Of a stretch of DNA of 64,000 nt, positions 3 through 15,203 are shown one piece after another. This DNA comes from Thiosocius teredinicola. GTDB lineage: Bacteria > Pseudomonadota > Gammaproteobacteria > Chromatiales > Chromatiaceae. A model generated the notes under the pieces. That model was not told the origin of the DNA. It saw nothing but the letters and a program-made list of their open reading frames with translations, and did no database searches. Positions within the stretch are counted from its first letter, which is position 1. Every line of letters begins with the position of its first letter. The position numbers and the translations under genes were made by a program. The DNA lies in assembly GCF_002009425.1 (NCBI RefSeq), contig NZ_CP019936.1, positions 2,777,297 through 2,841,296 of the forward strand. Reading direction: 5' to 3'.

Positions 3-455
3 ACCGCCGCCGGTGACATCTTCGACGAATCGATGGCGGTGTTCGACCGCACCTTTCGTATTACCGACGTGTTGCGTTACCTGTCGCTTGGTGTTGCCTT
101 TATCGGAGTACTGACGGCCCTGATGGCACTGCAGCTCGAGCGCAGAAAAGAATATGCGGTGGTGCGCGCGCTGGGACTGACCCGTCTCCAGCTCAGCGGT
201 CTGATCACCATCCAATCTGCGACGCTCGGCCTGATTGCCGCCCTGATGTCACTGCCGATCGGCATGTTGATGGCATGGGTGCTGACCGATTCGATACAGG
301 TCAACGCGTTTGGCTGGAGCATGCCGTTTCTGCTCGATCCCGCCCCGCTGGCCATTACTGTTGTACTGGGAATAGGCGCCGCGCTGATCGCCAGTATCTA
401 CCCGGCTTGGGAGGCCGGTAGCCAGCCACCTGCCGCGCAGCTGAGGGAAGACTGA
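3..455 (+). CDS. FtsX-family ABC transporter permease, C-terminal part
   Basis: The reading frame is already open at base 3, so the gene starts before the window. The visible part is the last ~150 residues of an FtsX/MacB-type permease. It has three hydrophobic segments separated by the typical cytoplasmic loop (ERRKEYAVVRALGLTRLQL) and ends in the usual 'YPAWEA...PAAQLRED' tail. Such permeases work with a LolD/MacB-type ATPase to move lipoproteins or lipophilic substrates across or out of the inner membrane; the ATPase should lie upstream, outside the window. The stop codon overlaps the start of the AttH-like lipoprotein gene by one base (TGATG), so the two are translationally coupled and probably act together. 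The family call is firm; the substrate is unknown. Confidence 0.85.
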   Translation, partial: TAAGDIFDESMAVFDRTFRITDVLRYLSLGVAFIGVLTALMALQLERRKEYAVVRALGLTRLQLSGLITIQSATLGLIAALMSLPIGMLMAWVLTDSIQVNAFGWSMPFLLDPAPLAITVVLGIGAALIASIYPAWEAGSQPPAAQLRED

Positions 456-1558: not shown

Positions 1559-1867
1559 TCAGGCACCGCACCTCGGCGTTGCAATTCGGCTTCGGTAGCG
1601 TGAGCAGGTTTCGCGGGCTACGCTTGTCGAAGGTCGGAATGATCCTACGTCGTTTGCCGATCTTCCCACCTTTTTGACCGGGCTCGCGGCGTACAACATC
1701 CGCAGTCATCGGCGGCTCACCACGGGGAACACCGGCGAGCCGGCCGTAGGGGGCGCCGTTCATCCGCCCAGGACTATTGCAGGATCGACAACCAGCCGAT
1801 GCGGCCGTGGTTCGCTGCCTATCGTTGCAACGCCCCACGGCCCGATCAAAAACATGGAGGGACCCAC
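1559..1867. other. Intergenic region before the peroxidase gene
   Basis: About 310 bases with no convincing gene on either strand. Short open frames cross it but show no recognisable protein features. It must contain the promoter of the peroxidase gene; I see no clear -35/-10 pair or operator. A good ribosome site (GGAGG at 1855-1859) sits just before the peroxidase start. Confidence 0.5.
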
Positions 1868-2851
1868 ATGCCACTGCAACACACACTGCCAACGACATTC
1901 GCCGCAGTCTTCATCCTGACTGCCGCAACAACAGCCTCGTTCGCCACATCGCCGGGCACACCCGACCGCGACCAGATCCCCTGGCCCGGCGGCAAACCGG
2001 CAACCGCCGAGATGATCGAGTTGGGTAAGGTTCTGTTTTTCGATCCCCGGCTGGTACCCAACGAGGGCCAGTCGTGCGCAAGCTGCCATGACCCCAACCA
2101 GGGCTGGAGCGACGGCGCGGCCTTCGGCGTGGATCACAAAGGCAAGCAGCAGAAACGCAACTCGCCCTCGATCGTGAATCTCGCCTATTCGCCGATCATC
2201 CACTGGGACGGCCGCACGGAAAGCCTCGAAAGCCAGGCATTCAAATCGATGGGCAAACGCGGCGTCGACACAACCTTTATCCCGAAGATCAGCAAGGTAC
2301 AGTGGTATCAGGAACAGTTCGCCAAGGTGTTTCCCGAATCAGGCATCACGCAGCAGAACATGGCTGCGGCCATCGCCGCCTTCGAACGCTCGCTGATCAG
2401 TGACAATGCCGCCTATGACCGCTATCTGCGCGGCGACAAGGCGGCGCTGAGCCCGTCCGCCGAACGAGGTTTGGCACTGTTCAGCGGCAAAGGCAACTGT
2501 ACCTTGTGCCACAACGGCCCAACCTTCTCAGACCACGCTTTCCACAACATCGGTGTCGCATCCAACGACCCCGGGCGTGGCGCAAAGGTGGATGACAAGG
2601 CGATGCAGGGGGCGTTCAAGACACCCGGCCTGCGCAATGTGCTGCTGACGGCGCCCTACATGCACGACGGATCGATCGGCACGCTCGAAGGTGTTATCGA
2701 GTTCTACAACCGTGGCGGCGACAGCACCGACAATCGCAGCGCGTTGATCAAACCGTTAGGACTGTCGCGCCAGGAAGTACTCGACCTGGTCGCCTTTATG
2801 GCTGCCCTGACCGACCCGGTTGTCGTCGAACCACCGACGATACCCTACTGA
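1868..2851 (+). CDS. Di-haem cytochrome c peroxidase (CCP/MauG family)
   Basis: A 327-residue periplasmic protein with a signal peptide (hydrophobic core at residues ~8-25, likely cleaved after SFA). Two haem-attachment motifs, CASCH (C70-H74) and CTLCH (C211-H215), mark the two domains of bacterial di-haem peroxidases, which reduce hydrogen peroxide with electrons from small cytochromes. The conserved 'FDPRL' after the first helix, 'NSPSIVNLAY', 'HWDGR' and 'KTPGLRNV...PYMHDG' all fit CCP. Length matches the family (320-350 residues). The ATG at 1868 has GGAGG eight bases upstream; an in-frame start 69 bases earlier would put extra residues before the signal peptide and is less likely. It is a single-gene unit convergent with the diguanylate cyclase. 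Confidence 0.93.
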   Translation: MPLQHTLPTTFAAVFILTAATTASFATSPGTPDRDQIPWPGGKPATAEMIELGKVLFFDPRLVPNEGQSCASCHDPNQGWSDGAAFGVDHKGKQQKRNSPSIVNLAYSPIIHWDGRTESLESQAFKSMGKRGVDTTFIPKISKVQWYQEQFAKVFPESGITQQNMAAAIAAFERSLISDNAAYDRYLRGDKAALSPSAERGLALFSGKGNCTLCHNGPTFSDHAFHNIGVASNDPGRGAKVDDKAMQGAFKTPGLRNVLLTAPYMHDGSIGTLEGVIEFYNRGGDSTDNRSALIKPLGLSRQEVLDLVAFMAALTDPVVVEPPTIPY

Positions 2852-2881
2852 CATCGCCGCCGCTTCGACGCCAATCGCCGC

Positions 2882-2909
2882 GCACGGTACTCTGCGCAGA
2901 GCACCGTGC
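2882..2909. terminator. Hairpin between convergent genes
   Basis: A nearly perfect 28-base inverted repeat, GCACGGT-A-CTCTG facing CAGAG-C-ACCGTGC, with one mismatch. It lies between the convergent peroxidase and diguanylate cyclase genes. Position and strength fit a bidirectional terminator, but no run of T follows on either strand, so it may be only an mRNA-stabilising hairpin. Confidence 0.5.
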
Positions 2910-2958
2910 CGCCATTGATTGGCGGCCGCAGGTGTTGCACAAGGATTCGCGCGGCCCG

Positions 2959-3900
2959 CTAATGGTCGTTGACGATGCAGTTGCGCCCACGTTGCTTGGC
3001 TTCGTACAGCCGACGGTCGACCGTCTCGATGAAGGCGACCGGATCGTCCTGGTGGGTCGGCACCAGACAGCCAACACCGAGACTGATCGTCAACAACTGG
3101 CCTGCCAGTGACCCCTCGTGGGGTATCTGCTCTTTGAAGATCAGATTGCGACAGCGTTCAGCCACCTTGGTCGCCGAACGTCCGTCGGTCTCGGGCAGGA
3201 TGAACACGAACTCTTCTCCGCCGTAACGCGCAAACACATCGCGCGAGCGCGTCGCGGCCGTATTAAGCACCGACGCGACCGTTTTCAGGCAGGTGTCTCC
3301 CTGTATGTGGCCATAGTGATCGTTGTACTGCTTGAAGAAATCGATATCCAGCAGGATCAGCGACAGCGGCCGCGCATTGCGCTTGGCATCGATCCACTCC
3401 GCCTCGAAGATCGAATCGAACATGCGACGGTTCGACACGCCGGTCAGGCCGTCCTTGAACGACAGCGATTCGAGTTCTCGCTGTAACTCGAGCAGCGTCT
3501 GTTCGGTTTTCTTGCGCTCGCTGATGTCGAACATAAAGCCGACCAGGGCCTCGACCTCTCCGGCCTCGTTGCGCACCACGTGCACCACGTCGCGAATCCA
3601 GACGTGCCCGCCGTCCTTGGTCAGTGCGCGATAATCGGCTTCGTGGTCGATACCGGCCTGCGACTGCGCGACGCAAAAGTTGACGACGCTTTCGCGGTCG
3701 TCGGTATGGATGCGCGCCGCCCAGTCTTCGACCGATGTCCAGCTGGCCGGCGTCCAGCCGAGCAATTCCTCGATCTGTGGACCGATGTAGGTGAAGCGCA
3801 TGCTTGCCCAATCGATCCGCCACGGGATCGCCTTGGTCGACTCGAGCAGGGTTTTATAGACGGCGTTATCGGAGTCGATGCAATTTTCATCGAGAGACAT
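2959..3900 (-). CDS. PAS-domain diguanylate cyclase (GGEEF)
   Basis: Makes cyclic di-GMP from GTP. The first ~130 residues form a PAS fold (class 3: 'FTYIGPQIEELLGW', then 'HTDDRESVV' and 'DGGHVWIRDVVHVVRNEAGEVEAL' in order), followed by the short 'DISERKKTE' linker helix and a GGDEF domain. The active-site loop reads GGEEF at about residues 226-230, so it should be catalytic. An RSRD motif five residues before it is the RxxD inhibitory I-site, so product feedback is expected. No membrane segment is present: it should be a cytoplasmic sensor. I chose the ATG at 3900; an in-frame start at 3939 lacks a better ribosome site. The gene follows the DRE-TIM lyase gene by 66 bases on the same strand and may share its transcript. 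Confidence 0.88.
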   Translation of the reverse strand: MSLDENCIDSDNAVYKTLLESTKAIPWRIDWASMRFTYIGPQIEELLGWTPASWTSVEDWAARIHTDDRESVVNFCVAQSQAGIDHEADYRALTKDGGHVWIRDVVHVVRNEAGEVEALVGFMFDISERKKTEQTLLELQRELESLSFKDGLTGVSNRRMFDSIFEAEWIDAKRNARPLSLILLDIDFFKQYNDHYGHIQGDTCLKTVASVLNTAATRSRDVFARYGGEEFVFILPETDGRSATKVAERCRNLIFKEQIPHEGSLAGQLLTISLGVGCLVPTHQDDPVAFIETVDRRLYEAKQRGRNCIVNDH

Positions 3901-3966
3901 GGTTGAACCTTGTTGTTGTTTATTGATACCCGGGTTCATGGTTCGGACGGCCGCGACACGGTGAGC

Positions 3967-5259
3967 TCAGCCTTGCGACGCCCGCTGATACAACGCCAGC
4001 AATTGTTCCGGTTCGTCGTAGACGATTCGTTTGCCGGCGCGCAGCTCGCGGCGCATCAAGCGGATCATCTGCTGCAGGACGGGTTCGGGGAAACTGTCGG
4101 CAGGCTTGCCCGTCACCTCGGCCAGGCGGCCGGCAATCACCTTTTCATCGCTGACCACCGGACAGATGCGGTAGCGGTAGGTGCCGCCGATCGCCTCGGG
4201 TACCAGGTCCATCGCCCGATCCGGCACCTGACGAAAGAAACTCAGCGGCAGACGGTAGGCATTGTGACCGAGGATCGGCAAATCGTCGGGCACGACCTCT
4301 TCCTCGTCGAGGATCTGCAGCCTGGTTGCCAGGGGCAGCAATTGGTCGAGCTGGTATTGCTGCATGTGCGGGTTACCGACACGCACCAGGTTGGCTATCA
4401 GCTCGCCGAGCGAGGCATGACCGATGATCGCAGCGCGTTTCGGCAACCCGCCCCAGGCGCCGTCGGCACCGTTGAGCAATGCCTCGATAACCGATGCGTT
4501 TTCGAAACCACCGCCGGCATGGATGTGCACCAGGATCTTGTGCGGTGCGGGCATCATCTGCCGGGCAATGGCCACGTAGGCGCCAACCTGTAGCGGCAGA
4601 TAGGTACCTCTGTCGTCCTCGATACTCACACCCTCGATCGCGAGACCATCGAGCATCCGCAACACCTGGCAAACGCGTTGCGGATTCTCGGCAAACGCAT
4701 CGCAGCCGTCGACGATGTTGATCAGGATGCGTGGTTTGCCGCCATCGTCGCCCTTGATGTGCTGGTTCAGCCAATCGACGCTTGCAGGAATGCTGCGCAG
4801 CAAGGTCGGCAGATCATACTGCCCTGCCATACCCGAATCGCTCAGATAGATCTCGTGCAGGGTGTTCGGCACGCCGTAGTCACGCATCTTGATCATCGAG
4901 CTCGACGGGGTAAAGCTGCCGTCTGCCGCGCTGATCCCGATATCGGTGAACACGAAGCAACCCGACATATCGATGTCGTGGTCGCGCAGGTACATCATGA
5001 AATCGTCGTCGACTTCCAGCTCGTCGGGCATCGAATAGTCGAGCGTACCCAACAGAATGTTGCGAAAACCGAAGTCGCGAAGCTTGGGCAGTATCGTGAG
5101 TTTCTCGTCGAGCGTCTGGCCGACACGCGCTCCGACCGGATTCTCACGTAACGAAAGATCGATGAAAAACGGCTCGATCGACCGCAGTTGGTTGAGCTTG
5201 GCGTCCACGTTGGCGAGTAAATCGCGGACACCATCCAACCCCTCTTGGCGCTGCTGCAT
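3967..5259 (-). CDS. DRE-TIM-type (HMG-CoA lyase/isopropylmalate synthase-like) protein
   Basis: A 430-residue cytoplasmic protein. Its middle reads like a TIM barrel of the HMGL-like metallolyase/aldolase superfamily: 'EPFFIDLSLRENPVGARVG' near the N-terminus, a strand with 'GVSIEDDRGTYLP', then 'KILVHIHAGGGFENASVIEALLNGAD', where the paired histidines resemble the metal-binding HxH of this fold. The last ~130 residues are a helical extension I do not recognise. The family members I know make or break C-C bonds next to a CoA-ester or keto acid; the substrate here is unknown. The ATG at 5259 has AAGGGA eight bases upstream; an earlier in-frame start would add 36 residues of non-homologous look. 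It probably leads a two-gene unit with the diguanylate cyclase. Confidence 0.65.
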   Translation of the reverse strand: MQQRQEGLDGVRDLLANVDAKLNQLRSIEPFFIDLSLRENPVGARVGQTLDEKLTILPKLRDFGFRNILLGTLDYSMPDELEVDDDFMMYLRDHDIDMSGCFVFTDIGISAADGSFTPSSSMIKMRDYGVPNTLHEIYLSDSGMAGQYDLPTLLRSIPASVDWLNQHIKGDDGGKPRILINIVDGCDAFAENPQRVCQVLRMLDGLAIEGVSIEDDRGTYLPLQVGAYVAIARQMMPAPHKILVHIHAGGGFENASVIEALLNGADGAWGGLPKRAAIIGHASLGELIANLVRVGNPHMQQYQLDQLLPLATRLQILDEEEVVPDDLPILGHNAYRLPLSFFRQVPDRAMDLVPEAIGGTYRYRICPVVSDEKVIAGRLAEVTGKPADSFPEPVLQQMIRLMRRELRAGKRIVYDEPEQLLALYQRASQG

Positions 5260-5469
5260 TGTTATCCCTTGTTGGTTGTTATTTGGATGCGGCGGCGAGA
5301 CGAAAAGCGGACCTGTTCCATGGCACTCGACCCGCCTACGGAATTTAAATCGGCCACACGAAAACAACCTTTAGGGCTGAACTGCTTGATGTCGGTTAAG
5401 TTACAGGCGTGTTACACGAGGGTGATACGCAGCGGGTGATTCTTGCAAAGCAAACGCCGCGTGCGTTTG

Positions 5470-5547
5470 CTAGCAACGCAATCGCTGACGCAGTTCTTCG
5501 ATAGGCAGCGGTCGATCCGGTCTTACACGGATACTGAATGATCGTTC
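5470..5547 (-). pseudogene. Stray 3' end of an APH/AAA kinase gene
   Basis: Read on the minus strand, these 26 codons (ending in TAG) encode a peptide matching the last residues of the kinase at 15985-17535: the shared core is FSI-x-VRPDRPLP-x-E-x-LRQ-x-L. By hand count 17 of 25 residues and 51 of 78 bases agree. Upstream of base 5547 the similarity stops after a few codons and an in-frame stop follows, so there is no gene left, only this 3' fragment. It has the same orientation as the intact gene and lies at the opposite edge of the accessory block. Confidence 0.7.
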
Positions 5548-5595
5548 CAGTGGTGATAGCGCAATCCTCCTTCATACTGATCGCGCCCACCGGAA

Positions 5596-6516
5596 CTAGC
5601 GATCATCAATTGTCTTCCAGTGAGAAAGGTCTCGCCCTAACAGTCCGGCAAGGCTATCGATTTCGCGGCTGAATTCTTCCAACAATTGGATACGAACTTG
5701 TTTCTGAACATCAGGCCGACCTGCCGAGTTCGTTATCAAGTTTCTTCTGATCCATTTTCTAGCCGCTGGCGGCGTCAATTTCATCGCGACTTTGTTCAGT
5801 ACGTTGTCACTAGACGCCAGCCGCGCCAACAGCCGCGACCTCGGCATTCCGGCGGCATTCAACCTGTACTGGGCTATCTCCCTCGCTTCAACGCCGAGAA
5901 AACCATGAATATCGTCCATTACCTGTTGGTTGTTCACTTTGAAATCATCGTACAAGACAAACATCAGATTTTGAGCGTCAAACGTATCTAGATACGTTTG
6001 CAGGAACTCCGAAACATGACCAAGCGACTTGTAATGCCAATGCCTGGCCCAATTGCTTCTCTTGCGAGATTCCTCCGCACGCAGCGCTTCGGCCAGAGGC
6101 AGATTCTCGTAGCCATCCCTAACATTATGCGTATATGACGAAATGACTCGTTCGATTGGATTGCGAATGACGATGACGATTTTCACGTCCGGCAGCGTTT
6201 TCTTGATCAACGCTGCAGGCTCATGAGCAGCACAATAAATAGGTGAGCCTTCCCCGATCGCTTTGTAGTTGCCCGAGGCTGCCTCCGCGAACAAATTCTT
6301 GTACTCACCCCAGTCCCAAACAGTCGTTTTGTTGAACCTCCCTTCGTCTCCCGGCCCTTCGAATTCCGGCTTCACGCCGGGAAACGCAAAGTAACGAGGC
6401 TCTTTAATGCGGCTGAAATACACTTCGGGATGAGACGCAAGATAGTCCGCAATCGTTGTGGTACCCGATTTCGAACACCCGGCAATAATGAAGTTCGGCA
6501 AACAATCACTGATCAT
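5596..6516 (-). CDS. PAPS-dependent sulfotransferase
   Basis: A 306-residue cytoplasmic sulfotransferase that should move sulfate from 3'-phosphoadenylyl sulfate to a sugar or lipid. The 5'-phosphosulfate loop (IIAGCSKSGTTTIADYL) lies at residues ~9-25 and the 3'-phosphate site (VIVIRNPIERVISSYTHN) near residue 110, followed by the helix 'EALRAEESRK'. This layout matches the Sulfotransfer_1/heparan-type family (about 280-320 residues). The ATG at 6516 starts just before the first strand; an in-frame start 57 bases earlier adds residues without family resemblance. It is the last gene of the minus-strand glycan block and is AT-richer than the core genes. The acceptor is unknown, presumably the glycan made by the neighbours. 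Confidence 0.85.
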   Translation of the reverse strand: MISDCLPNFIIAGCSKSGTTTIADYLASHPEVYFSRIKEPRYFAFPGVKPEFEGPGDEGRFNKTTVWDWGEYKNLFAEAASGNYKAIGEGSPIYCAAHEPAALIKKTLPDVKIVIVIRNPIERVISSYTHNVRDGYENLPLAEALRAEESRKRSNWARHWHYKSLGHVSEFLQTYLDTFDAQNLMFVLYDDFKVNNQQVMDDIHGFLGVEAREIAQYRLNAAGMPRSRLLARLASSDNVLNKVAMKLTPPAARKWIRRNLITNSAGRPDVQKQVRIQLLEEFSREIDSLAGLLGRDLSHWKTIDDR

Positions 6517-6813
6517 AAAAGACTCTGATAAATAACTCGGAATTACTGCGCCCGATACTCGGCGCGCATGCACAAGAAGTCGGGCTCATGAAACTACCAC
6601 TTGAGCTTGTCCGCTGAGTACAGCGATGCCCGCAGTACTCCGAGACCTCTGGCCCAGTGGTTCGGCCCTTGCCAACAATGCGAGCGGAGTTCTGGCCCGC
6701 CGATCTTCTGATCAAAAAAGCTTACCTGCATCCAATCTCCACCCAATCCATCCGGCCGCTGCTGCTTTGCGCATAGTGCGCTGTCGTGCGAGGTACCCGT
6801 AAGGGCTTGGCTT

Positions 6814-7647
6814 TTATCTCGACGTTAACGAGCGGATAACTATTCCAACAAAGGAGCTTAACAGCGGGACAAAGAACAAGTGCTTGTCGCGCCATGAGAA
6901 CTCCTTCATGTTCTTCTTGAGTACGTTGAATTTTATGAGCGACTTCGATAGCTTGCTTTGTCTGTCGAAGCAAGTGTTGGCATCATGAACTCGATAAGCA
7001 GAGACGGGGGTGTCGATGAACCCGAGCAAGTTTCTCGCAACCAATCTCAAGTAGAAATCTCTGTCCTCAACCTTAAGGTTCTCGTCGAACAAAAACTCTT
7101 CATGTAGCTCTTTCCTGGTCATGATTACGCTGCCTGTTACCGACCAGTTCTGAATGATCTGTCGCTTCAATCCGCTATCTGTCCGGTATTCGGACTTCCT
7201 CGCTGAATGCAAATCAACCAAACCACTAGAAAATATCACGTTGCCATCCATATCAATGACTTGACTGTCACCGAATACAGCCATCTTCTCTGGGTGAGCT
7301 TGAAGGTAGTCGTAGCGCGCTTGCAGGCTACCAGGTACGAGCTTGTCGTCACTCGCAAGCCCGACCAAATAGTCACCCTTCGTCAGGCCAATCAATTCAT
7401 TGATTGTTGCCGATACGCCTTTGTTCGGCCGGCTAACGTAAGTAACCGGTATCTGATCGCCATGTAGTTCAATCCATTCTTCAATTCGCGAAGCAGTTTG
7501 GTCGGTCGAACCGTCATCAATGATCACGATTTCTTTGTTCGGGTAGGACTGCAGTCGAACGCTCTCAAGTGTCTCGGTGACGAACTGCTCGTGGTTATAT
7601 GCGGGGATGCGAACACTTATCAGTGGTAGCGTAGAGGGAGTACCCAT
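6814..7647 (-). CDS. Family 2 glycosyltransferase
   Basis: An inverting GT-A glycosyltransferase of 277 residues, cytoplasmic or membrane-associated. Hallmarks: 'PLISVRIPAYNHEQFVTETLESVRLQSYPNKEIV' start, the nucleotide-binding 'IIDDGSTDQT' near residue 45, and the metal site 'GLASDDKLVPGSL' near residue 100. A last hydrophobic stretch (FVPLLSSFVGIVI) may touch the membrane. It should transfer one sugar of the surface glycan. The ATG at 7647 has AGGA seven bases upstream; a TTG 18 bases earlier is less likely. The genes on both sides are sulfotransferases transcribed the same way. Confidence 0.88.
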   Translation of the reverse strand: MGTPSTLPLISVRIPAYNHEQFVTETLESVRLQSYPNKEIVIIDDGSTDQTASRIEEWIELHGDQIPVTYVSRPNKGVSATINELIGLTKGDYLVGLASDDKLVPGSLQARYDYLQAHPEKMAVFGDSQVIDMDGNVIFSSGLVDLHSARKSEYRTDSGLKRQIIQNWSVTGSVIMTRKELHEEFLFDENLKVEDRDFYLRLVARNLLGFIDTPVSAYRVHDANTCFDRQSKLSKSLIKFNVLKKNMKEFSWRDKHLFFVPLLSSFVGIVIRSLTSR

Positions 7648-7775
7648 GACTATTCCTGAAGACAACTTAATGCTTGCGATTGAAGCTTCCGCAGAGTTGG
7701 AAGTCTGTGATCATTCGAAAAGGTGGGATCATTGTGCCATTCACGCCGAGATCAATGGTCTGAACTACCGCTCGC

Positions 7776-8618
7776 TTAAGCATGATCATTATTTCGGCGA
7801 GCTGCCGAAAATAATGGCGCGAACAAATCCGCCAAAAAAGACATATCGCGATCACTGAAATATAGCGTCTTAACTCGTCCGCGTTCGTAAGGTACTACGC
7901 CCGGTATGGTATTTAGATCCACGTCCAGCACCTTGTCGAAATCATGATCGTTCGCTATTCCATAGCGATTCAACAAAGGGAACAAAGCACGACCGGGGGT
8001 TTCACAGAACAGATCGTAATCCAACAGATTCTCAGCACCAACGGCATTGAAGAGCACGTAGTTTCTCACTGCCAGGATAAATGCCGTTTTTCGCGTAACG
8101 GAATCAAGTGTCGACAATGCCCAAGCAAACCGCTCCTTCAGGAAAGGATGGCTTGTCACCAGTTCCGCCAATTCAAGCACTGCCCCCTCATACCAGTCCT
8201 CTAGAAATTTGTTCTCCACGCATGACTGCAATATATGGTAAGGATCACGCCAAATCCCCCAGTGCCCAATCTTCGGGTACTTGGCCATGGACCATGGCAC
8301 GGCGAGATGATTGATATTTGTTATCAAGACATGGAGCCGACCTTCTACCAAGCCTTCTGTTGTAGTCGAGGTTTTCCAATGGTAAACCGTCTCTATGTAG
8401 TCGGTGTACAAGCGTCCATGCTCTAGTTCGGAGAAAAAATGCCGGTCTTCATCCGAGGCTGATTCGTCCGTCAGCAGCACGTTCATTTTGCGACGGATGC
8501 TGCCACTATTGAACACGCGCCAAAGAAGTTCCACCTGAGGATGCGTTGCGATCGCCTTGGAAATGGCACTTGTGCCGGAACGGTCGAAACCGGTAAGCAA
8601 GGCAACGTTAGTTTGCAT
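7776..8618 (-). CDS. Second sulfotransferase-like protein
   Basis: A 280-residue protein beginning with 'VALLTGFDRSGTSAISKAIATHP', the 5'-phosphosulfate loop of PAPS-dependent sulfotransferases (G-x-x-R-S-G-T-S at residues ~7-14), followed by a possible PAPS-contact strand around 'KIGHWGIWRDPYHILQSCVEN' near residue 135. It is clearly distinct from the other sulfotransferase of the block and may sulfate a different position or acceptor. The start is uncertain: ATG at 8618 (AAGG ten bases upstream) or at 8642; both overlap the end of the DegT-like gene, so translation is coupled to it. Confidence 0.72.
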   Translation of the reverse strand: MQTNVALLTGFDRSGTSAISKAIATHPQVELLWRVFNSGSIRRKMNVLLTDESASDEDRHFFSELEHGRLYTDYIETVYHWKTSTTTEGLVEGRLHVLITNINHLAVPWSMAKYPKIGHWGIWRDPYHILQSCVENKFLEDWYEGAVLELAELVTSHPFLKERFAWALSTLDSVTRKTAFILAVRNYVLFNAVGAENLLDYDLFCETPGRALFPLLNRYGIANDHDFDKVLDVDLNTIPGVVPYERGRVKTLYFSDRDMSFLADLFAPLFSAARRNNDHA

Positions 8619-9558
8619 CGATGAAGGCCTTGAGCAACGCATGGATCATGTTCATGTATGCTCGTGAACTTGCTTGATGGCACGGTAGGAAAAAGGCCTC
8701 CTTTCCGTAAAAGACACTACACTGAACACCCATGGCCCATAGGTAGTCCTTCAGTGCGGGATAATCGAGTGGCCCTTCGTACTGGAACAAAAACACCCCG
8801 GGAGCCGCGCCTTGCTTCAGTTTCATCAATGGCCTGATTCCCAAGCCCTGCAAACGTTCAGCTAACGCCAAGTGATTCTCACATCGGCTTTTGGCAATGC
8901 TTTCGAGCTGAGGGTAATAGGTTGCGAGCGCAACCTCTACGTATCGCCTGTCGTTGTTCGACGTGGCTTCAGATAGCAAGGGCTGCGCAGATAAGGCAAA
9001 TCCCCCTACTTGAACAGGCAGGTACTTGGGTAGACTGAATATTGCGTAATCGCCGAAGCTTCCGACTGGTTCGCCATCTTCGTAATGACAGCCCATCGAA
9101 TACGCGCAATCCTCGATGATCGGCAATCCGTAATGCCTGAGGACTCGCAGCCGTTCTATGTCGAATGGATAGCCGAACTCATGGTTGACCAGGATCGCAC
9201 GGGTGTTGCTGTCAATTCCCTCTCTGATCCAGTCTGCTCGAGATTCGATCGTTTGAGTAACACAACCAGAAACGTAGTGATTTCCGGTTGTGGTGTAGAT
9301 TGCAACATTGTCGCCTCGCTGCACACCAATGTCCCCGAGTACCAGCTCGAGTGCATGACGGCCACTTGTGGTGGGTGTACATACTTTGCCGGGATAGCGT
9401 TGTTCGACCAACGAACAACCATTATCGGTGACGTTACTGGTGAGCCGTGCGGCATTGCTCGCCATATCTCCGGCGGTTACCGGAATCAGAAGAAACGCTG
9501 GATGATTGTGCGCGATTGGTCGAACAACAAACCCTTCATCACTGACATGGCCTTTCAT
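8608..9558 (-). CDS. DegT/DnrJ/EryC1-type PLP-dependent enzyme
   Basis: A 316-residue fold-type I PLP enzyme related to sugar aminotransferases. Seen: 'TPTTSGRHALELVLGDIGVQRGD' (phosphate-binding turn) at residues 61-83, 'LVNHEFGYPFDIERLR' near 125, the cofactor aspartate in 'PIIEDCAYSMG' (D150), and the Schiff-base lysine in 'FSLPKYLPVQVGG' (K178). It is shorter than typical DegT enzymes (370-400 residues), and the region after the lysine is reduced, so the substrate may not be a nucleotide sugar. It lies 33 bases after the FemAB-like gene and overlaps the following sulfotransferase gene. Role inferred from context: aminating or otherwise modifying a component of the same glycan. Confidence 0.72.
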   Translation of the reverse strand: MKGHVSDEGFVVRPIAHNHPAFLLIPVTAGDMASNAARLTSNVTDNGCSLVEQRYPGKVCTPTTSGRHALELVLGDIGVQRGDNVAIYTTTGNHYVSGCVTQTIESRADWIREGIDSNTRAILVNHEFGYPFDIERLRVLRHYGLPIIEDCAYSMGCHYEDGEPVGSFGDYAIFSLPKYLPVQVGGFALSAQPLLSEATSNNDRRYVEVALATYYPQLESIAKSRCENHLALAERLQGLGIRPLMKLKQGAAPGVFLFQYEGPLDYPALKDYLWAMGVQCSVFYGKEAFFLPCHQASSRAYMNMIHALLKAFIDAN

Positions 9559-9591: not shown

Positions 9592-10545
9592 TCAAGCCAA
9601 CTGTAGTTCATAGAAGTCATGTACTACGCCGCGGCCGCCGAAACCCTCTTTCTGAGCCTGCAGACCACGATTAATCGACATGCCGGCATCGGTGGTCGAG
9701 ATACCGAAATCGAAGTACCGCGCATCTGGTACCAAGCCGATTGCGAATTCTATCGCCGCGTCCAGCGCACCGACCTCGCGGCCCGCTGTGGAATTGGCCA
9801 AATACTGGGCATGTACCACACCACGGTTTATGTAAAGAAGCGCGCCAGCCAGCAGCGTGCCATCCGCATCTCGAGCCTCGCACAGGCGAATATTCTTGGG
9901 GAAACGCTTGTGGAGAAGTTCCATTTCCTCTCGACTGTGAATCGCTTTGACTCCGTGACGCTCGACAAGAACTTCATTGAGCAACAACCAAAATTCACTC
10001 AGATCTGCGGCCTCAGTACAACCGATGCCGGCCCGCTGTGCTTTTTTAATGTTCTCCTTACGACCTTTCGAATATGCAATTCGCGAGGACAGACGTATCG
10101 CCGTAGAGATATCTCGCCGGAACAATCGGCCGCCTTGGCTGAACAACGCGTAGAGATCTTCTTCTGACGGCAAGGCAGCGTAGATATAAGGAATTGCCTT
10201 ATAAACGATCCGCGAGAAACCCTTCGAGGAAGTGTAGGCGCGAAGCTCAGCAACCACTTCCGACATAAGGGTTACGCCCGTGCGCTGGCTCGATAGGATT
10301 CCACCGAAAGTAAGGCCCTCATGACTGATCAGCTCGCTTTCCTTCTCATTAGCGGGCAACAAAGCGATCAGTTTGCCTTTTTGTTCGAACATCAGCGAAT
10401 GATCGGCAAAGCGATCGCCGTGGTAGTCCATGTAATCGCGCATGAACATGAAATGACCATTCTTCGCGTTGTCGACGAACTCGTTCCATCGATGCTTGGA
10501 ATCGGGTTCGTAACGTCTGACAGTGATCCCACCTGCTTTCCGCAC
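9592..10545 (-). CDS. FemAB-like GNAT acyl/aminoacyltransferase
   Basis: A 317-residue protein of the FemAB/GNAT superfamily as found in polysaccharide and exosortase gene clusters: 'ITVRRYEPDSKHRWNEFVDNAKNGHFM' start, the first half-domain to residue ~130, then 'KGRKENIKKAQRAGI' and the acyl-CoA-like second half with 'LLAGALLYINRGVVHAQYLANS' and 'YFDFGIS'. These enzymes add an amino-acid or acyl group to an amine, often on a sugar. The start is GTG with AGGAAG about nine bases upstream. A 236-base gap separates it from the acyl carrier protein gene, so it may begin a second transcription unit. Confidence 0.78.
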   Translation of the reverse strand: MRKAGGITVRRYEPDSKHRWNEFVDNAKNGHFMFMRDYMDYHGDRFADHSLMFEQKGKLIALLPANEKESELISHEGLTFGGILSSQRTGVTLMSEVVAELRAYTSSKGFSRIVYKAIPYIYAALPSEEDLYALFSQGGRLFRRDISTAIRLSSRIAYSKGRKENIKKAQRAGIGCTEAADLSEFWLLLNEVLVERHGVKAIHSREEMELLHKRFPKNIRLCEARDADGTLLAGALLYINRGVVHAQYLANSTAGREVGALDAAIEFAIGLVPDARYFDFGISTTDAGMSINRGLQAQKEGFGGRGVVHDFYELQLA

Positions 10546-10781: not shown

Positions 10782-11015
10782 TCAATCGAGTTCAGTCAGA
10801 AAACCAAGGATCGCAGCAATTGAGTTAAGGTTTTCTGCCTGCTCATTCGGAATACTGATGCCGTATTTTTCCTCGACTCCAAGCAGGATATTGAAGATTT
10901 CGAGGGAATCTATCCCGACGTCGGCAAAGTCGTCACCTTCTGACATTGCATCAACGTCAGCGGCAGTTTCCACATCTTTGATGATGGCTTTGATTTCTTC
11001 TACGTTGGCTTTCAT
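10782..11015 (-). CDS. Dedicated acyl carrier protein
   Basis: A 77-residue acidic acyl carrier protein. The phosphopantetheine site is the serine in 'DVGIDSLEIFNILLGVEEKYGI' (S37). It is not the housekeeping AcpP: the motif is DSLE followed by IFNILL rather than DSLDTVELVMALE, and the gene sits in a glycan cluster, not with fabD/fabF. It follows the KAS III gene by five bases and has AGAGG nine bases before its ATG. Inferred role: to carry the acyl chain started by the KAS III and hand it to the LpxD-like acyltransferase. Confidence 0.9.
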   Translation of the reverse strand: MKANVEEIKAIIKDVETAADVDAMSEGDDFADVGIDSLEIFNILLGVEEKYGISIPNEQAENLNSIAAILGFLTELD

Positions 11016-11020
11016 GAAGC

Positions 11021-11959
11021 TTAGCCTCTTGTGTCTCTTAAAGCAGTTGTAAGTACGCAGCTTCCCCAGGACAACCCAACCCCGAATCCCGAAATCAGAA
11101 TTCTGGGCACATCGTGATCCACGTCCGCAAGAATCATCGGTATCGAAGAGGACACCGTATTTCCGTAAGCATTGGCGGCAAAGGGTACTTTCTCCGGCGC
11201 AACTTTTAAACGCTTGACGAGCGTGTCACGGATATACCGGCTACCCTGGTGAAGGACAAACAGATCGATTTCGTCCACATCAACTTCGTTTGACATCAAG
11301 GTGTCGCGGATATTCTTCGGAACGACCGTTGCCGTAAAATTGAAAACTCCCCGTCCGTCCATATGCAGTTCACCGGTGTCGTCAACTTCGATAGCCCCGG
11401 CGTGTTTCCCATCCGAACCAAACAGAAACTTGCCAATGTTCCATTTTGGTTTGTCGCTCAATAGGGTTGCGGTGGCACCGTCGCCGAACAACAGAGCAGT
11501 ATTCTTGTCATTCTCGTCAACCACTTTGGAGTAAGGGTCTGCCGTTATGAGTACGCCTTTGTTATATCCGTTTACCTCCATGAACCCCTTCATGATAGAA
11601 AGCCCGTAGACATAACCGGAACATCCCAGCGATACATCGAAGACGGCGCAATCTCGCGATAGGCCCGCTTTGCCGTGAACGATTGCCGAGGTATGCGGCA
11701 AACCATGCCCGTCCGGGTTCTGGGTGCAAACCACCAGGCACTGAATTTCGTCCAACTCCAGGCCCGTCCGAGCAACCAGATCGGCGAGTGCGGCAATGCC
11801 CAGGTCCGAGGTCTCCTGATCGTCTGACTTGTGCGCGACCTGAAGCATACCCGTCTTCTCGCGGATGAAAGCCTCGTCGGTTTCAAACTCGCTCAACCGG
11901 GTCAAATTATCTACTTTCTTCTCGGGAATGTAGATCCCGATGTCCTGTATCCCGATCAT
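11021..11959 (-). CDS. FabH-like 3-oxoacyl-ACP synthase III
   Basis: A 312-residue KAS III-type thiolase-fold enzyme. The Cys-His-Asn triad is complete: C113 in 'SLGCSGYVYGL', H237 in 'VLHQGSRYI' and N267 in 'NAYGNTVSSSIP'. The C-terminal 'GFGVGLSWGS' loop is also conserved. KAS III enzymes condense an acyl-CoA with malonyl-ACP, giving a short 3-oxoacyl-ACP; some relatives instead transfer acyl groups. The start overlaps the end of the 198-residue gene by four bases (ATGA) and the ACP gene follows after five bases, so the three products are made together. The setting argues for a dedicated acyl-supply role rather than bulk fatty-acid synthesis. Confidence 0.9.
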   Translation of the reverse strand: MIGIQDIGIYIPEKKVDNLTRLSEFETDEAFIREKTGMLQVAHKSDDQETSDLGIAALADLVARTGLELDEIQCLVVCTQNPDGHGLPHTSAIVHGKAGLSRDCAVFDVSLGCSGYVYGLSIMKGFMEVNGYNKGVLITADPYSKVVDENDKNTALLFGDGATATLLSDKPKWNIGKFLFGSDGKHAGAIEVDDTGELHMDGRGVFNFTATVVPKNIRDTLMSNEVDVDEIDLFVLHQGSRYIRDTLVKRLKVAPEKVPFAANAYGNTVSSSIPMILADVDHDVPRILISGFGVGLSWGSCVLTTALRDTRG

Positions 11960-12552
11960 CTGTCGATCAAAGAAAAGTAAATGGTACCTGCGGCATGGCC
12001 GTCATCCAAAATGCGGGTTTTCACCAGCTTGTTTTGAAAGTTGTGTGTAACTCGCAAGCTGGTCGGCCCGCCAGATTTACGAAAGCTGTCTAGCTCTATA
12101 CCGGTGAAAATCCAGCGTCCTTGGATATCGGGGTGTGTTTGCGACAAAAGATGTTTATTCATGGCAACGGCAATCTCCATGAATGTGTATTGTGAACTAC
12201 CGTCATAGTAGATTTGCTCATCATTGATTCGGCATGCATCGACGATCGACTGTTCGTCATACGGTATTCTCCGGCAATCGCAGCCATCTGTCAGTTCCAG
12301 CAAATCAAACCAAACGGCTTTTCCATTGAGGTGGAAACGTCCGCGGAACTTACCTTCATATTGTTTGGGGTCGGCATCGAAGAACTTGACGCGACAATTA
12401 CAGTTCTGGATCAAGCCATGTGCCGTCATTCGAATATCAGAAATCTCACCGGAACTTGTAGATTCCAATACTGAATTAAATAAGTCAGCACCCTGGATGT
12501 AATTACGCTGGCCACGGTAAGCAAAATTCAGATCTAAATCGTGCAAAAACAC
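11956..12552 (-). CDS. Unknown 198-residue protein coupled to KAS III
   Basis: I do not recognise this protein. It is soluble, with no signal peptide or membrane segment. Visible features: 'YRGQRNYIQGADLFNSVLE' near the start, a Cys-rich patch (NCNCRVKFF, then TDGCDCRRIPYDE), and an alternating strand-like second half ending 'AAGTIYFSLIDR'. The start is GTG with GAGGTGG just before it; it lies ten bases after the LpxD-like gene and overlaps the KAS III gene by four bases. The strand-rich pattern could suit a hotdog-fold thioesterase or dehydratase that acts on the ACP-bound chain, but that is a guess from context. It is AT-richer than the core genome. Confidence 0.75.
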   Translation of the reverse strand: MFLHDLDLNFAYRGQRNYIQGADLFNSVLESTSSGEISDIRMTAHGLIQNCNCRVKFFDADPKQYEGKFRGRFHLNGKAVWFDLLELTDGCDCRRIPYDEQSIVDACRINDEQIYYDGSSQYTFMEIAVAMNKHLLSQTHPDIQGRWIFTGIELDSFRKSGGPTSLRVTHNFQNKLVKTRILDDGHAAGTIYFSLIDR

Positions 12553-12562
12553 TCAATCCACC

Positions 12563-13441
12563 TCAACCCTTCTTGCGCCGGACGTGGCTGAACATATTCC
12601 GCGCATGAGGAACCGCAAAATTGCCTGACACTCGCTCGCCTTTATCGATGTCTTCAATCACTACGCTGCCGATCTCCAGCTTGGCATCATCGCCAATTTC
12701 GCGGAGATTTCCGACAGTAACCGATGGAGCGATCCAAACATTGTTGCCTACAGAAGTGTAGCCAGCGATCTGCGAGTTGCCTGCAATGATCGTCCGGCTA
12801 CCGATACTACAACCGTGAGCGATATGGGCATGCACACTGACGACCGATTGTTCACCTATTTCTGTAAAATTACTATGCAACGCCTTTGAAACCACCGCCC
12901 CCGCCAACACGTGCACGCCCCTACGAAGGCGAACTCCGCCCGCATGTTTAACGCAAAAGAGTTCGGACGGAAAGCGTTTGAAAAAATGTCCTTCCGCGCC
13001 AATCACTGCGTTGGGACCGATTCTTACGCCGTCTTCCAGAACCGTTCCCGACAAAACGACAGCGCCAACGTCGATCTCGACGTCTTCACCGATTTCGACG
13101 TATTCGTCGACATAAGCTCGAGGATGAATCTTTGCGGTTTCAGCAATACCCGGATTAAGTGCCGGACGCATTTGCTGTTGTTCACACAGAAGGTTGTGCA
13201 AGCGATAAAACGTTTCCTCCGCCGAATCAACGACAACGAGCCCCTTGCTCTGTTCAATCTCTTTTGCCAACTCGGGGGTCGTTACCACACAAGTGATCGC
13301 TGGATTCTCGTTGGCGATCTGCACGTAACGTGACGCGCCGACAAAACAGATGCTATCCGGTTGGTCAGAGTTGACGAATTGTGTCTGTCTGAATTTGCCG
13401 TTTTTTTGCGCAGTATCGAAGAAATCGCTTAGCTGGTGCAT
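12563..13441 (-). CDS. LpxD-like hexapeptide-repeat N-acyltransferase
   Basis: A 292-residue relative of LpxD. The first ~90 residues resemble LpxD's uridine-binding domain ('SICFVGASRYVQ', 'VVTTPELAKEI', 'LVVVDSAEETFYRL'). From residue ~98 a left-handed beta-helix follows, with repeats such as 'IGEDVEIDVGAVV', 'DGVRIGPNAVIG' and 'IGSRTIIAGNSQIAG'. The catalytic-type histidine is seen in 'VHAHIAHGCSIG'. LpxD moves a 3-hydroxyacyl chain from ACP to the amine of a nucleotide amino sugar. Here the likely acceptor is the 3-amino sugar made by FdtA/FdtB, and the donor the dedicated ACP downstream. It is not the housekeeping lpxD (no bamA/fabZ/lpxA nearby). The start codon overlaps a TGA in the preceding decayed frame (TGATG). 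Confidence 0.82.
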   Translation of the reverse strand: MHQLSDFFDTAQKNGKFRQTQFVNSDQPDSICFVGASRYVQIANENPAITCVVTTPELAKEIEQSKGLVVVDSAEETFYRLHNLLCEQQQMRPALNPGIAETAKIHPRAYVDEYVEIGEDVEIDVGAVVLSGTVLEDGVRIGPNAVIGAEGHFFKRFPSELFCVKHAGGVRLRRGVHVLAGAVVSKALHSNFTEIGEQSVVSVHAHIAHGCSIGSRTIIAGNSQIAGYTSVGNNVWIAPSVTVGNLREIGDDAKLEIGSVVIEDIDKGERVSGNFAVPHARNMFSHVRRKKG

Positions 13442-13656
13442 CAGACTTTATCCTCTAACGGATTGAACAACAGCTGCCGTTCTTCGGAGAGATAGAACGC
13501 GGCTTGATGAAGGAAGTTGACAGACGGTGAATGATCAGGATTGCCGTCTCATCAAGCAGGCATTTGGAAGGCGACAACATCCTGAAGAGCCAGGATGAAA
13601 TTGGTGCCGTTCCCACTCGAACTTCCCCCTGTTCCATGCCGATCTGAATCTGTCGC
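13441..13656 (-). pseudogene. Decayed or frame-broken short gene
   Basis: Between the aminotransferase stop and the acyltransferase start no single frame is open, yet part looks coding. From the TGATGA at about 13549-13554 to the TGA at 13441-13443 one minus-strand frame reads 33 plausible residues (… NFLHQAAFYLSEERQL …) and its TGA overlaps the next ATG by one base, the usual form of a coupled gene junction. Further upstream, protein-like stretches appear in other frames (FRSAWNRGKFEW; TNFILALQDVV). This suggests a small gene broken by frameshifts and stops. I cannot identify it; chance is not excluded. Confidence 0.35.
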
Positions 13657-14784
13657 TCAGCTGCAGGTGTTGTCTGCATGCGCGCGCACGACATCTCGAA
13701 CAGCGACAATGACTTCTTCCACTTCCTGATCCGTTAGATAGGGATCGATAGGAAGACTGAAACAATCGGCTGCCCAGCGACGACTGAATATCGCGCGATC
13801 GGCACCTTCAATGCCATCTGCATAAGCGGGAGTATCGGGTACACACTGCGGATAGTGGATCTGGCATTGGATGCCCCTATCCGACAAGGATTCCACCAGT
13901 GCATCCCTCGCGGGGTGGCGCACGACATAGAGATGCCAAACAGCCGACGAGTCTTCCGCAATTCGCGGCAACTGTAGACCCGGCAAGTCCCGCAGGCTGG
14001 AAGACAACTTTTCTGCGATGATATTTCGACGCTCGTTCCATTCGTCGAGATGCTGCAGCTTGACCCGCAAAAAGGCGGCCTGCAGTTCATCCAGACGAGA
14101 ATTTACTCCTTGCGCCTCATGCAAATACTTCGTGCGGCTGCCGTAATTGCGCAACATTCTCAAACGTTCCGCCAATTGCGGATCATTGGTGGTGACTGCA
14201 CCACCATCTCCGAGCGCCCCCAGGTTTTTCCCTGGATAAAAGCTGAAACACGCGGCGTGGCCGATCGAACCCGTTCTGCGGTTTTTGTATCGGGCGCCGT
14301 GCGCTTGCGCAGCATCTTCGATTACTTTCAATCCGTGCTTTTCCGCCACAGCCATAATCGGATCCATATCTGCTGGTTCCCCATACAGGTGAACCGCGAT
14401 GATCGCTTTCGTGACTGAGGAAATGGCGTTTTCCAGTTGTCGAGGATCGATCAGCGGACTGTCTGCAGAGACGTCTATCAGTACCGGCGTCGCCCCCGAC
14501 ATGCTGACGGCCAATGCCGTGGCGATAAAGGTGTGAGCCGGCAGCAACACTTCATCGCCTGGTCCAATATCCATAGCCCTGAGCGTCAGGGCCAGCGCAT
14601 CCAAACCATTGCCGACCGCCACACAATGGTCCGCGTTGCAATAGTCTGAAAACTCTTTCTCGAACGCATTGACCTCATCGCCAAGGATGAACCATCCGTT
14701 CTTCATTACCCTTAGATAAGCTTCGTCGAGCTGCGGCTGCAATTGCTCGTGCATCCGGTTGAGGTCCAAAAAAGGAAATGTCAT
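13657..14784 (-). CDS. fdtB: dTDP-3-oxo-6-deoxyhexose 3-aminotransferase (FdtB/QdtB-like)
   Basis: A 375-residue DegT/DnrJ/EryC1 aminotransferase. It should use PLP and glutamate to turn a dTDP-3-keto-6-deoxyhexose into the 3-amino sugar. Seen: '[12 protein letters not shown]' start, '[15 protein letters not shown]' cofactor turn, '[14 protein letters not shown]', '[12 protein letters not shown]' with the PLP aspartate, and the Schiff-base lysine in '[16 protein letters not shown]' (K186). The start ATG (14784) overlaps the end of the fdtA-like gene by four bases (ATGA); an ATG 12 bases earlier lies inside fdtA. Pairing with a 3,4-ketoisomerase points to Fuc3N or Qui3N; the sequence alone does not decide which. 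Confidence 0.9.
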
Positions 14785-15203
14785 TGGTGACCCCAATAGC
14801 GCTTTGCAGCCTCTTTAAAAGTGTCGTAGTTACGGTAGTAGTCAGTTTCGTCGTAATGATCGGAGGCCAGAACCAAGCAGACAGACCCAGACGAAAAGTT
14901 ATCGATCTCCCGCCAAATCATCGGAGTCACATACAACCCATAGTACGAGCGGTTCATATGGAAACTCCGTTTCTCGGCACCGTCATCCAGATGTACATCG
15001 AAGCTACCTGAAATAGCAACGATCAACTGGGAGAGGGCTTTGTGTCCATGCCCGCCTCGCTCAGCGCCCCCGGGGACGTCATAAAGGTAGTATGTTCGCG
15101 CGATATCGAAAGGGATGTGGGTCCCGCCCTCGATGAAGGTCAAGTTTCCCCTGCGATCATTGATGCGCGGTAAATCCAAGATGCGACAATCGTTAAGTGC
15201 CAT
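14781..15203 (-). CDS. fdtA: dTDP-4-oxo-6-deoxyglucose 3,4-ketoisomerase (FdtA/QdtA-like)
   Basis: A 140-residue cupin. It has the family's signature run: '[20 protein letters not shown]', '[18 protein letters not shown]', '[13 protein letters not shown]' and '[21 protein letters not shown]'. Enzymes of this kind move the keto group of dTDP-4-keto-6-deoxyglucose from C4 to C3, giving the Fuc3N (galacto) or Qui3N (gluco) precursor. The ATG at 15203 has AAGGA six bases upstream. It is the first gene of the minus-strand glycan block. RmlA/RmlB, which would make the substrate, are not in the window and must be supplied elsewhere. Confidence 0.9.

What the first reader, a model, noticed from the sequence alone, without database searches (positions are those of the whole stretch)
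10782..15203. Dedicated KAS III-ACP-LpxD-like module for an unusual N-acyl 3-amino-3,6-dideoxyhexose
FdtA- and FdtB-like enzymes give a dTDP-3-amino-3,6-dideoxyhexose. Normally a small CoA-dependent acetyltransferase (FdtC/QdtC) follows. Here the neighbours are an LpxD-like transferase, which in lipid A synthesis takes 3-hydroxyacyl-ACP, plus its own ACP and a FabH-like condensing enzyme. Together they could build a short 3-oxo- or 3-hydroxyacyl-ACP (for example 3-hydroxybutyryl) and place it on the amine. 3-Hydroxybutyryl-Fuc3N/Qui3N is known from some O-antigens, so the product type is realistic, but this gene set with its own ACP looks like an uncommon route.
Basis: partly seen in the sequence, partly recalled or inferred. 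Interest (0 to 1): 0.75.

Follow-up and report, generated by a model that had tools for sequence, protein, structure and literature searches.

The report
Amino-sugar acyl cassette with hotdog partner
A small gene set that looks able to build a short fatty-acid-like group on its own carrier protein and attach it to an unusual surface sugar; the general idea is known from flagellin sugars, but here it includes a conserved, undescribed partner protein that turns up in the same setting in other bacteria.

Summary
In detail: six - strand genes (10782-15203) encode FdtA, a DegT aminotransferase, an LpxD-like hexapeptide protein, a 198-aa protein (p198), a KAS III with Cys-His-Asn, and an ACP, in a low-GC island. 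The full set recurs, reordered, in two distant bacteria, L012 and L015. It has a published relative: the P. syringae viosamine island, with KAS III, ACP, ketoreductase and acyltransferase (PMC3927599). It has no significant Pfam, NCBIfam or PDB-sequence match and is predicted with high confidence to be a double hotdog. It is present in 27 of the 80 KAS III loci returned, directly upstream of KAS III in 26, with an adjacent ACP in 26. No ketoreductase was found in those 27. Sugar context and acyltransferase type vary while the triad stays. I read it as a portable acyl-ACP cassette for amino-sugar N-acylation, a new variant of a known kind; p198's reaction and the acyl group are unknown.

The parts
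14781..15203 (-). FdtA-type dTDP-sugar 3,4-ketoisomerase, 140 aa
   Evidence: Pfam FdtA E 1.4e-56; solved relatives FdtA 2pa7 and QdtA 4o9e
13657..14796 (-). DegT/DnrJ sugar aminotransferase, FdtB/QdtB-like, 379 aa; the true start may lie a few codons inside
   Evidence: Pfam E 2.7e-119; nearest solved chains 2oga (titled transaminase; recalled as DesV) and QdtB 3frk
12563..13441 (-). LpxD-like left-handed beta-helix acyltransferase, 292 aa; presumed sugar N-acyltransferase
   Evidence: LpxD models matched below cut-off; aligns to LpxD 4e75 and LpxA chains, N-terminal part only weakly; His209 kept in 14 of 15 aligned rows, window included
11956..12552 (-). p198: undescribed protein predicted to be a compact double hotdog, 198 aa
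   Evidence: AlphaFold2 pLDDT 94.9, pTM 0.90; structure matches to TesB thioesterases and PKS dehydratase domains; no significant Pfam, NCBIfam or PDB-sequence match
11021..11959 (-). KAS III (FabH-like), 312 aa, Cys113, His237, Asn267; overlaps p198 by 4 nt
   Evidence: both Pfam domains; triad columns invariant in the 3 rows of A2; 30% identical to the genome's other KAS III
10782..11015 (-). acyl carrier protein, 77 aa, Ser37 of GIDSL
   Evidence: Pfam PP-binding E 2.6e-9; serine invariant in the 3 rows of A4
9592..10545 (-). FemAB-like/GNAT protein, 317 aa; probably part of the same glycan island
   Evidence: Pfam Acetyltransf_6 E 6.3e-6; pepcterm_femAB 40 bits against cut-off 260
8608..9558 (-). 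short DegT-like PLP protein, 316 aa
   Evidence: Pfam DegT E 1.7e-16
7776..8642 (-). 288-aa protein, sulfotransferase-like by eye only
   Evidence: no Pfam hit; sequence
6814..7665 (-). family 2 glycosyltransferase, 283 aa
   Evidence: Pfam Glycos_transf_2 E 1.4e-25
5596..6573 (-). sulfotransferase, 325 aa
   Evidence: Pfam Sulfotransfer_1 E 1.9e-16

Best explanation
The six genes form an acyl-ACP-dependent amino-sugar N-acylation cassette. FdtA and the DegT enzyme turn dTDP-4-keto-6-deoxyglucose into a dTDP-3-amino-3,6-dideoxyhexose (Fuc3N or Qui3N, not resolved). KAS III condenses a short acyl-CoA, most likely acetyl-CoA, with malonyl on the cassette's ACP to give a 3-oxoacyl-ACP. Cellular FabG may reduce it in trans. 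The double-hotdog p198 then acts on the ACP-bound acyl chain; my best guess is a dehydratase/hydratase-type step. The LpxD-like transferase places the finished acyl group on the sugar's 3-amine. KAS III, ACP and p198 are the portable supply half; sugar genes and transferase are swapped between organisms. Shown here: gene content, conservation, KAS III triad, fold prediction of p198, co-occurrence. Inferred: every catalytic step, the acyl donor, chain length, and what p198 does.
For: Of 80 KAS III loci, 27 have p198; it directly precedes KAS III in 26. An ACP lies within 400 nt of KAS III in 26 of 27 against 3 of 53 others (2 of 53, which missed that of L070). A transferase of the hexapeptide cluster lies within 5 kb in 21 of 27 against 1 of 53. 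Of the other six, L026, L027 and L032 have hexapeptide cluster c47 (Pfam-checked in L026), L033 an AAC(3)-type gene, L037 a weak GNAT, L049 none seen. Complete fdtA, DegT, LpxD-like, p198, KAS III, ACP sets occur in L012 and L015. Searches begun from p198 found it beside KAS III in L006, L007, L136 and as a stop-broken remnant in L040. The triad also sits with nonulosonate-type genes, named by eye (L010, L036, L044, L059). Precedent: P. syringae vioS (KAS III), vioR, acp, vioB; the vioR mutant loses modified viosamine (PMC3927599, passages and section 2.3). N-3-hydroxybutyryl-Fuc3N is a known glycan residue (a reference title in PMC3628348, a legend in PMC5093214).
Against: No biochemical or glycan data for any p198 locus. 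No FabG-like SDR was found in the 27 loci or near the window cassette, so a 3-hydroxyacyl group is an assumption. fdtA is in 2 of 27 p198 loci; a DegT gene lies within 5 kb in 20 of 27 but also in 23 of 53 others, and NeuB-type genes are commoner in the others (21 of 53 against 3 of 27). The LpxD-like protein is below the LpxD cut-offs; its ACP preference is inferred. The L079 hexapeptide hit is a 106-aa ORF on the other strand and the L043 hit is 4.7 kb away. On the KAS III tree the p198 label needs 9 changes, 5 forced by well-supported branches. p198 has no conserved His, against a canonical dehydratase.
Confidence: 0.6

Rival explanations
1. p198 is a true dehydratase or dehydratase/isomerase: with FabG in trans the cassette makes 2-butenoyl- (or 3-butenoyl-) ACP, so the sugar carries an unsaturated, or after enoyl reduction a butyryl, group. 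A variant: p198 dehydrates and rehydrates to invert (R)- into (S)-3-hydroxybutyryl.
Against: No conserved His in 28 members (best column 15 of 28); TesB thioesterases match equally well; no sequence similarity to dehydratase profiles (the latter without power).
Confidence: 0.25
2. p198 is a hydrolase or decarboxylase on the ACP: an editing thioesterase that clears wrong acyl groups, or a malonyl-ACP decarboxylase like MadA/MadB or LnmK that makes acetyl-ACP, so the transferred group could be plain acetyl.
Against: No Pfam hit to the Mad family in 28 members; a decarboxylase would make the conserved KAS III hard to explain. Whether p198 has a Mad-like Asn loop was not tested.
Confidence: 0.25
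3. The LpxD-like enzyme is an ordinary acetyl-CoA-dependent sugar N-acetyltransferase (FdtC/QdtC-like) and KAS III, ACP and p198 serve another product of the island, for instance through the FemAB-like protein.
For: Sugar N-acetyltransferases VioB 7txp (33.6 bits) and PerB 4ea7 (22.9 bits) are among its relatives, and several LpxD chains (23-31 bits) score no better than VioB; a FemAB/GNAT-like gene follows the ACP.
Against: The best LpxD chain (66 bits) and many LpxA chains (34-52 bits) score above VioB; a hexapeptide transferase travels with the triad in 21 of 27 loci; no relative of the FemAB-like protein was found in the fetched loci.
Confidence: 0.12

Closest known systems
Viosamine island of Pseudomonas syringae pv. 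tabaci (vioA, vioB, vioS, vioR, acp) and the PAK glycosylation island
   Same: KAS III, ACP and a VioB acyltransferase beside a sugar aminotransferase; the product is an N-(3-hydroxy-1-oxobutyl) dideoxy amino sugar (PMC3927599, passages)
   Different: there a 4-amino sugar and a dedicated ketoreductase vioR; here a 3-amino sugar, no ketoreductase found, and p198 in the cassette
L070 locus of Seleniivibrio woodruffii (KAS III, ACP, SDR ketoreductase, hexapeptide transferase, further on fdtA and fdtB)
   Same: the same reaction logic for a 3-amino-3,6-dideoxyhexose
   Different: a ketoreductase and no p198, in the locus or genome-wide (G589)
FdtA/FdtB/FdtC and QdtA/QdtB/QdtC pathways
   Same: ketoisomerase and 3-aminotransferase
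   Different: the usual third step is recalled as a small CoA-dependent acetyltransferase; here an LpxD-like enzyme with an ACP beside it
FdhC of Acinetobacter nosocomialis (recalled, from no call)
   Same: recalled to add 3-hydroxybutyryl to dTDP-Fuc3N
   Different: recalled as a GNAT enzyme using CoA, not an LpxD-like enzyme with ACP
LpxD of lipid A synthesis
   Same: left-handed beta-helix, weak LpxD-like N-terminal part, His209 column
   Different: below the LpxD cut-offs; two genes above the LpxD cut-off lie elsewhere in the genome
Double-hotdog enzymes: TesB thioesterases, PKS dehydratase domains, LnmK
   Same: predicted fold of p198 for TesB and PKS dehydratases; LnmK from PMC8666670
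   Different: no sequence match; shorter (198 aa); no conserved His; invariant Arg16, Glu100 and Lys133 in 28 rows

Membership tests
KAS III (FabH family) | ACP_syn_III domains and Cys-His-Asn triad | tested here: met
   (triad identity recalled)
KAS III (FabH family) | score of the general FabH subfamily models | tested here: not met
   TIGR00747 193.6 bits against 292.1 and NF006829 224.7 against 249; a separate KAS III sits between PlsX- and FabD-like genes
LpxD | score above TIGR01853 or PRK00892 cut-off | tested here: not met
   118.9 against 242.5 and 138.6 against 207 bits
LpxD | acyl-ACP donor | not testable with these tools
   needs an assay
FdtA/QdtA ketoisomerase | FdtA domain | tested here: met
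   solved relatives
FdtA/QdtA ketoisomerase | galacto or gluco product residues (recalled: Arg/His in FdtA, Tyr/Arg in QdtA) | tested here: inconclusive
   window has Arg at both places, a mixed pattern (alignments)
FdtC/QdtC acetyltransferase | close relation to QdtC/FdtC | tested here: inconclusive
   no chain so named among 34 listed at E 0.001 in a sequence search
Viosamine-type KAS III/ACP/hexapeptide cassette | KAS III, ACP and hexapeptide transferase beside a sugar aminotransferase | tested here: met
Viosamine-type KAS III/ACP/hexapeptide cassette | dedicated ketoreductase | tested here: not met
   the only window hit to two SDR queries is PhaB-like, about 47 kb away
Hotdog dehydratase (FabA/FabZ/PKS-DH) | hotdog fold | tested here: met
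   predicted model; structure matches
Hotdog dehydratase (FabA/FabZ/PKS-DH) | conserved catalytic His | tested here: not met
   no His column above 15 of 28
MadA/MadB malonyl-ACP decarboxylase | match to the Mad Pfam family | tested here: inconclusive
   no hit in 28 members at E 10, HMMER's filters on

The most novel reading that the evidence does not exclude
p198 founds a new double-hotdog enzyme family with an unusual invariant Arg16-Glu100-Lys133 set and no conserved His, working with one KAS III clade and its ACP. Where viosamine-type cassettes have a ketoreductase, it carries out a different acyl-ACP tailoring step (for example dehydration and rehydration that sets the stereochemistry, or formation of an unsaturated N-acyl group), giving amino sugars with acyl groups not made by the known route, in organisms from Cyanobacteria and Bacteroidota to Proteobacteria.
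Probability: 0.4. Interest if true: 0.72.

Novelty: new variant of a known kind. Interest (0 to 1): 0.56.

Why it matters
N-acyl groups on surface sugars shape antigenicity, phage binding and flagellin recognition (general knowledge), yet how acyl groups longer than acetyl reach nucleotide sugars is worked out for only a few cases. A portable KAS III-ACP-p198 cassette that recurs with different transferases and sugars would give a genomic marker for such residues and a small, self-contained system for reconstitution. It also gives an unassigned protein family a precise, testable role.

Tried and rejected
p198 as a ketoreductase: rejected, as the model has two hotdog-like units and no Rossmann pattern. 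p198 as the sugar acyltransferase: not favoured, because 26 of 27 p198 loci have a separate acyltransferase candidate, some of them weak. Profile comparison of p198 with PKS dehydratases and TesB gave nothing, but the control pair dehydratase-TesB failed too; several dehydratase rows were short fragments and TesB had 4 rows, so that test has no power. A protein search of PLSDB plasmids found no p198.

Counts corrected on checking. The FdtA cluster count (4 of 27) mixes RmlC with FdtA: L047 is RmlC only and L012 an RmlC-FdtA fusion; a search of all ORFs of the fetched loci gives L012 and L015 of 27, plus L070. The ACP profile missed the L070 ACP; a richer profile, which includes that ACP, gives 3 of 53. 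Two of the 53 'other' loci are not clean negatives: in L050 KAS III starts 60 nt from the contig end, and L040 has a p198 remnant with an in-frame stop beside KAS III. Alignment A5, used for conservation and the model, holds 28 of 31 p198 proteins (the window and 27 of the 30 hits); L032, L049 and L079 were left out as long or partial ORFs. The motif check used simple patterns that missed or misplaced a motif in L016, L018, L035 and L041. The KAS III tree has 60 rows: window, 58 loci and one FabH; 24 of the 53 p198-less loci were left out, ORFs over 325 aa were cut to their last 325 aa, and the window's place is not firm. One search dropped KAS III or small ORFs in many loci; replace it. The GNAT label of cluster c38 rests on hits mostly under the cut-off in 3 of 4 members; L041 has none. 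NeuA, NeuB, PseG, Wzx and like labels are mine, by eye.

Print: searches and 107 of the open-access library listed no paper whose title or abstract start joins a double hotdog with KAS III in glycan loci. Listings were read; seven papers were opened for passages (PMC3927599, also section 2.3; PMC4875605, PMC3765264, PMC7874193, PMC8666670, PMC3628348, PMC5093214). Most subscription papers are not held.
Full report
What is there. The window lies in a 4.79 Mb single-contig genome. An island of - strand genes runs from 15203 down to 5596, with 50.9% GC against 60.2% and 61.6% on its sides. A FemAB/GNAT-like gene, a short DegT-like gene, an unassigned gene, a GT2 and a sulfotransferase follow. p198 overlaps KAS III by 4 nt, and KAS III is 5 nt from the ACP. 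In 190 related genomes p198 was found in 3, the window's own included, and in none of the eight same-genus genomes listed; with the GC shift this points to horizontal gain.

The sugar half. FdtA is a clear member of its family and resembles solved FdtA and QdtA about equally. At two places that I recall as deciding galacto or gluco product it shows a mixed pattern, so Fuc3N or Qui3N stays open. The aminotransferase is nearest to 2oga (recalled as the desosamine enzyme DesV) and QdtB. The precursor gene rmlB is present elsewhere, above its cut-off.

The acyl half. KAS III has the Cys-His-Asn triad. It is 30% identical to the only other KAS III found in the genome, which lies between PlsX-like and FabD-like genes (names by eye). 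The ACP has its serine. The LpxD-like protein keeps His209, aligned with the His of the LpxD/LpxA IAH motif (catalytic role recalled), in 14 of 15 rows, the window included. Its N-terminal part resembles LpxD only weakly (one chain, 18 bits), and it scores under the LpxD cut-offs. Two genes above that cut-off lie elsewhere.

The cassette elsewhere. An iterated profile finds p198 in 27 of the 80, and in L008 and L010 from two other genomes. In 26 of the 27 it directly precedes KAS III; in L044 it lies 1.3 kb downstream. An ACP lies within 400 nt of KAS III in 26 of 27 against 3 of 53 others; in L015, the exception, the ACP stands before the LpxD-like gene. A transferase of the hexapeptide cluster lies within 5 kb in 21 of 27 against 1 of 53, with two poor cases, L079 (106 aa, other strand) and L043 (4.7 kb away). 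DegT genes are near in 20 of 27 and 23 of 53, NeuB-type genes in 3 of 27 and 21 of 53. Of the 53, 34 are Pseudomonas by record title, mostly flagellin islands, so the contrast overstates independent evidence.

Searches started from p198 found it beside KAS III in L006 and L007, in L136, whose proteins read as those of L012, and as a stop-broken remnant beside KAS III of L040. One further weak fragment in that last genome lies on another contig and was not followed. It is rare: 1 of 398 genomes of the phylum, the window's own, and 3 of 369 of the class of G175.

What varies. The complete six-gene set occurs in L012 (a gammaproteobacterial MAG, with an RmlC-FdtA fusion) and L015 (Aliiroseovarius), in other orders. 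Identities to the window are 37-43% FdtA, 48-52% aminotransferase, 47-50% LpxD-like, 22-31% p198 and 58-60% KAS III. These are the only two of the 27 with fdtA in the DNA held. Other loci put the triad next to nonulosonate-type genes (L010, L036, L044, L059) or other sugar genes, named by eye. The transferase is LpxD-like, PglD-like (L044 above the Pfam cut-off, L010 and L059 below), weakly GNAT-like, or AAC(3)-like (L033). This swapping is the best sign that KAS III, ACP and p198 together supply an acyl group and that the transferase is the partner that uses it.

Ketoreductase. With the SDR of L070 as query, no FabG-like protein was found in the fetched loci except L070 itself. As a control the query finds the PhaB-like protein of the window at E 1.8e-24, about 47 kb from the cassette; that protein as query adds only a weak hit in L048, which has no p198. 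L070 has KAS III, an ACP, the SDR, a hexapeptide protein and, further on, fdtA and fdtB, and its genome shows no p198. So cassettes for the same sugar type exist with a ketoreductase and with p198. On the KAS III tree p198 presence needs 9 changes, 5 of them forced by well-supported branches, which suits repeated loss or exchange.

Known relatives. The P. syringae viosamine island has KAS III (vioS), reductase (vioR), ACP and acyltransferase (vioB); a vioR mutant lacks modified viosamine, and the product is N-(3-hydroxy-1-oxobutyl)-2-O-methylviosamine (PMC3927599; passages and section 2.3). Fatty-acid genes in flagellin islands are also described in Enterobacteriaceae and Aeromonas (PMC4875605, PMC7874193; passages). 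N-3-hydroxybutyryl-Fuc3N is known from A. baumannii O2 (a reference title in PMC3628348) and Proteus penneri core (a legend in PMC5093214). MadA/MadB show that a hotdog can act on ACP as a malonyl-ACP decarboxylase (PMC8666670; abstract and passages).

Verdict. It is a variant of a published route rather than a new route. The part worth following is p198: a rare, undescribed double-hotdog family, tied to one kind of KAS III and its ACP in sugar loci of several phyla, with an unknown reaction that can be tested with purified proteins.

Noticed in passing
window 62777-63514: PhaB/FabG-like SDR reductase (acetoacetyl-CoA reductase type by eye), about 47 kb from the cassette; could help make a 3-hydroxybutyryl group in trans but nothing links it.
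   Followed up: partly
window 5596-6573 and 7776-8642: One sulfotransferase, and one P-loop-like protein without a Pfam match, in the same island beside a GT2: the glycan may be sulfated.
   Followed up: partly
L051 8770-9402 and 9353-9997: Helicobacter sp. MIT 11-5569 has two p198 genes in tandem; the first lacks the acid at position 126 (alignment).
   Followed up: no
L012 7530-8519: RmlC-FdtA fusion protein in front of an LpxD-like/p198/KAS III/ACP set.
   Followed up: yes
L033 143-949 and L040 8159-8974: AAC(3)-type N-acetyltransferase domains (Antibiotic_NAT) next to the KAS III-ACP pair, probably acting on amino sugars.
   Followed up: partly
L040, just upstream of KAS III (about 6619-6987): p198 remnant with an in-frame stop beside a KAS III-ACP pair (Thiofilum flexile).
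   Followed up: partly
34 Pseudomonas loci among L052-L090: KAS III of the same clade in what are mostly flagellin islands, in several beside NeuA-, PseG- and NeuB-like genes (by eye), with no p198 in the held DNA and no ACP found by my profiles; four of these genomes searched whole show no p198.
   Followed up: partly
window 13442-13656: A 215-nt gap splits the otherwise tight run of cassette genes; a promoter there was not tested.
   Followed up: no
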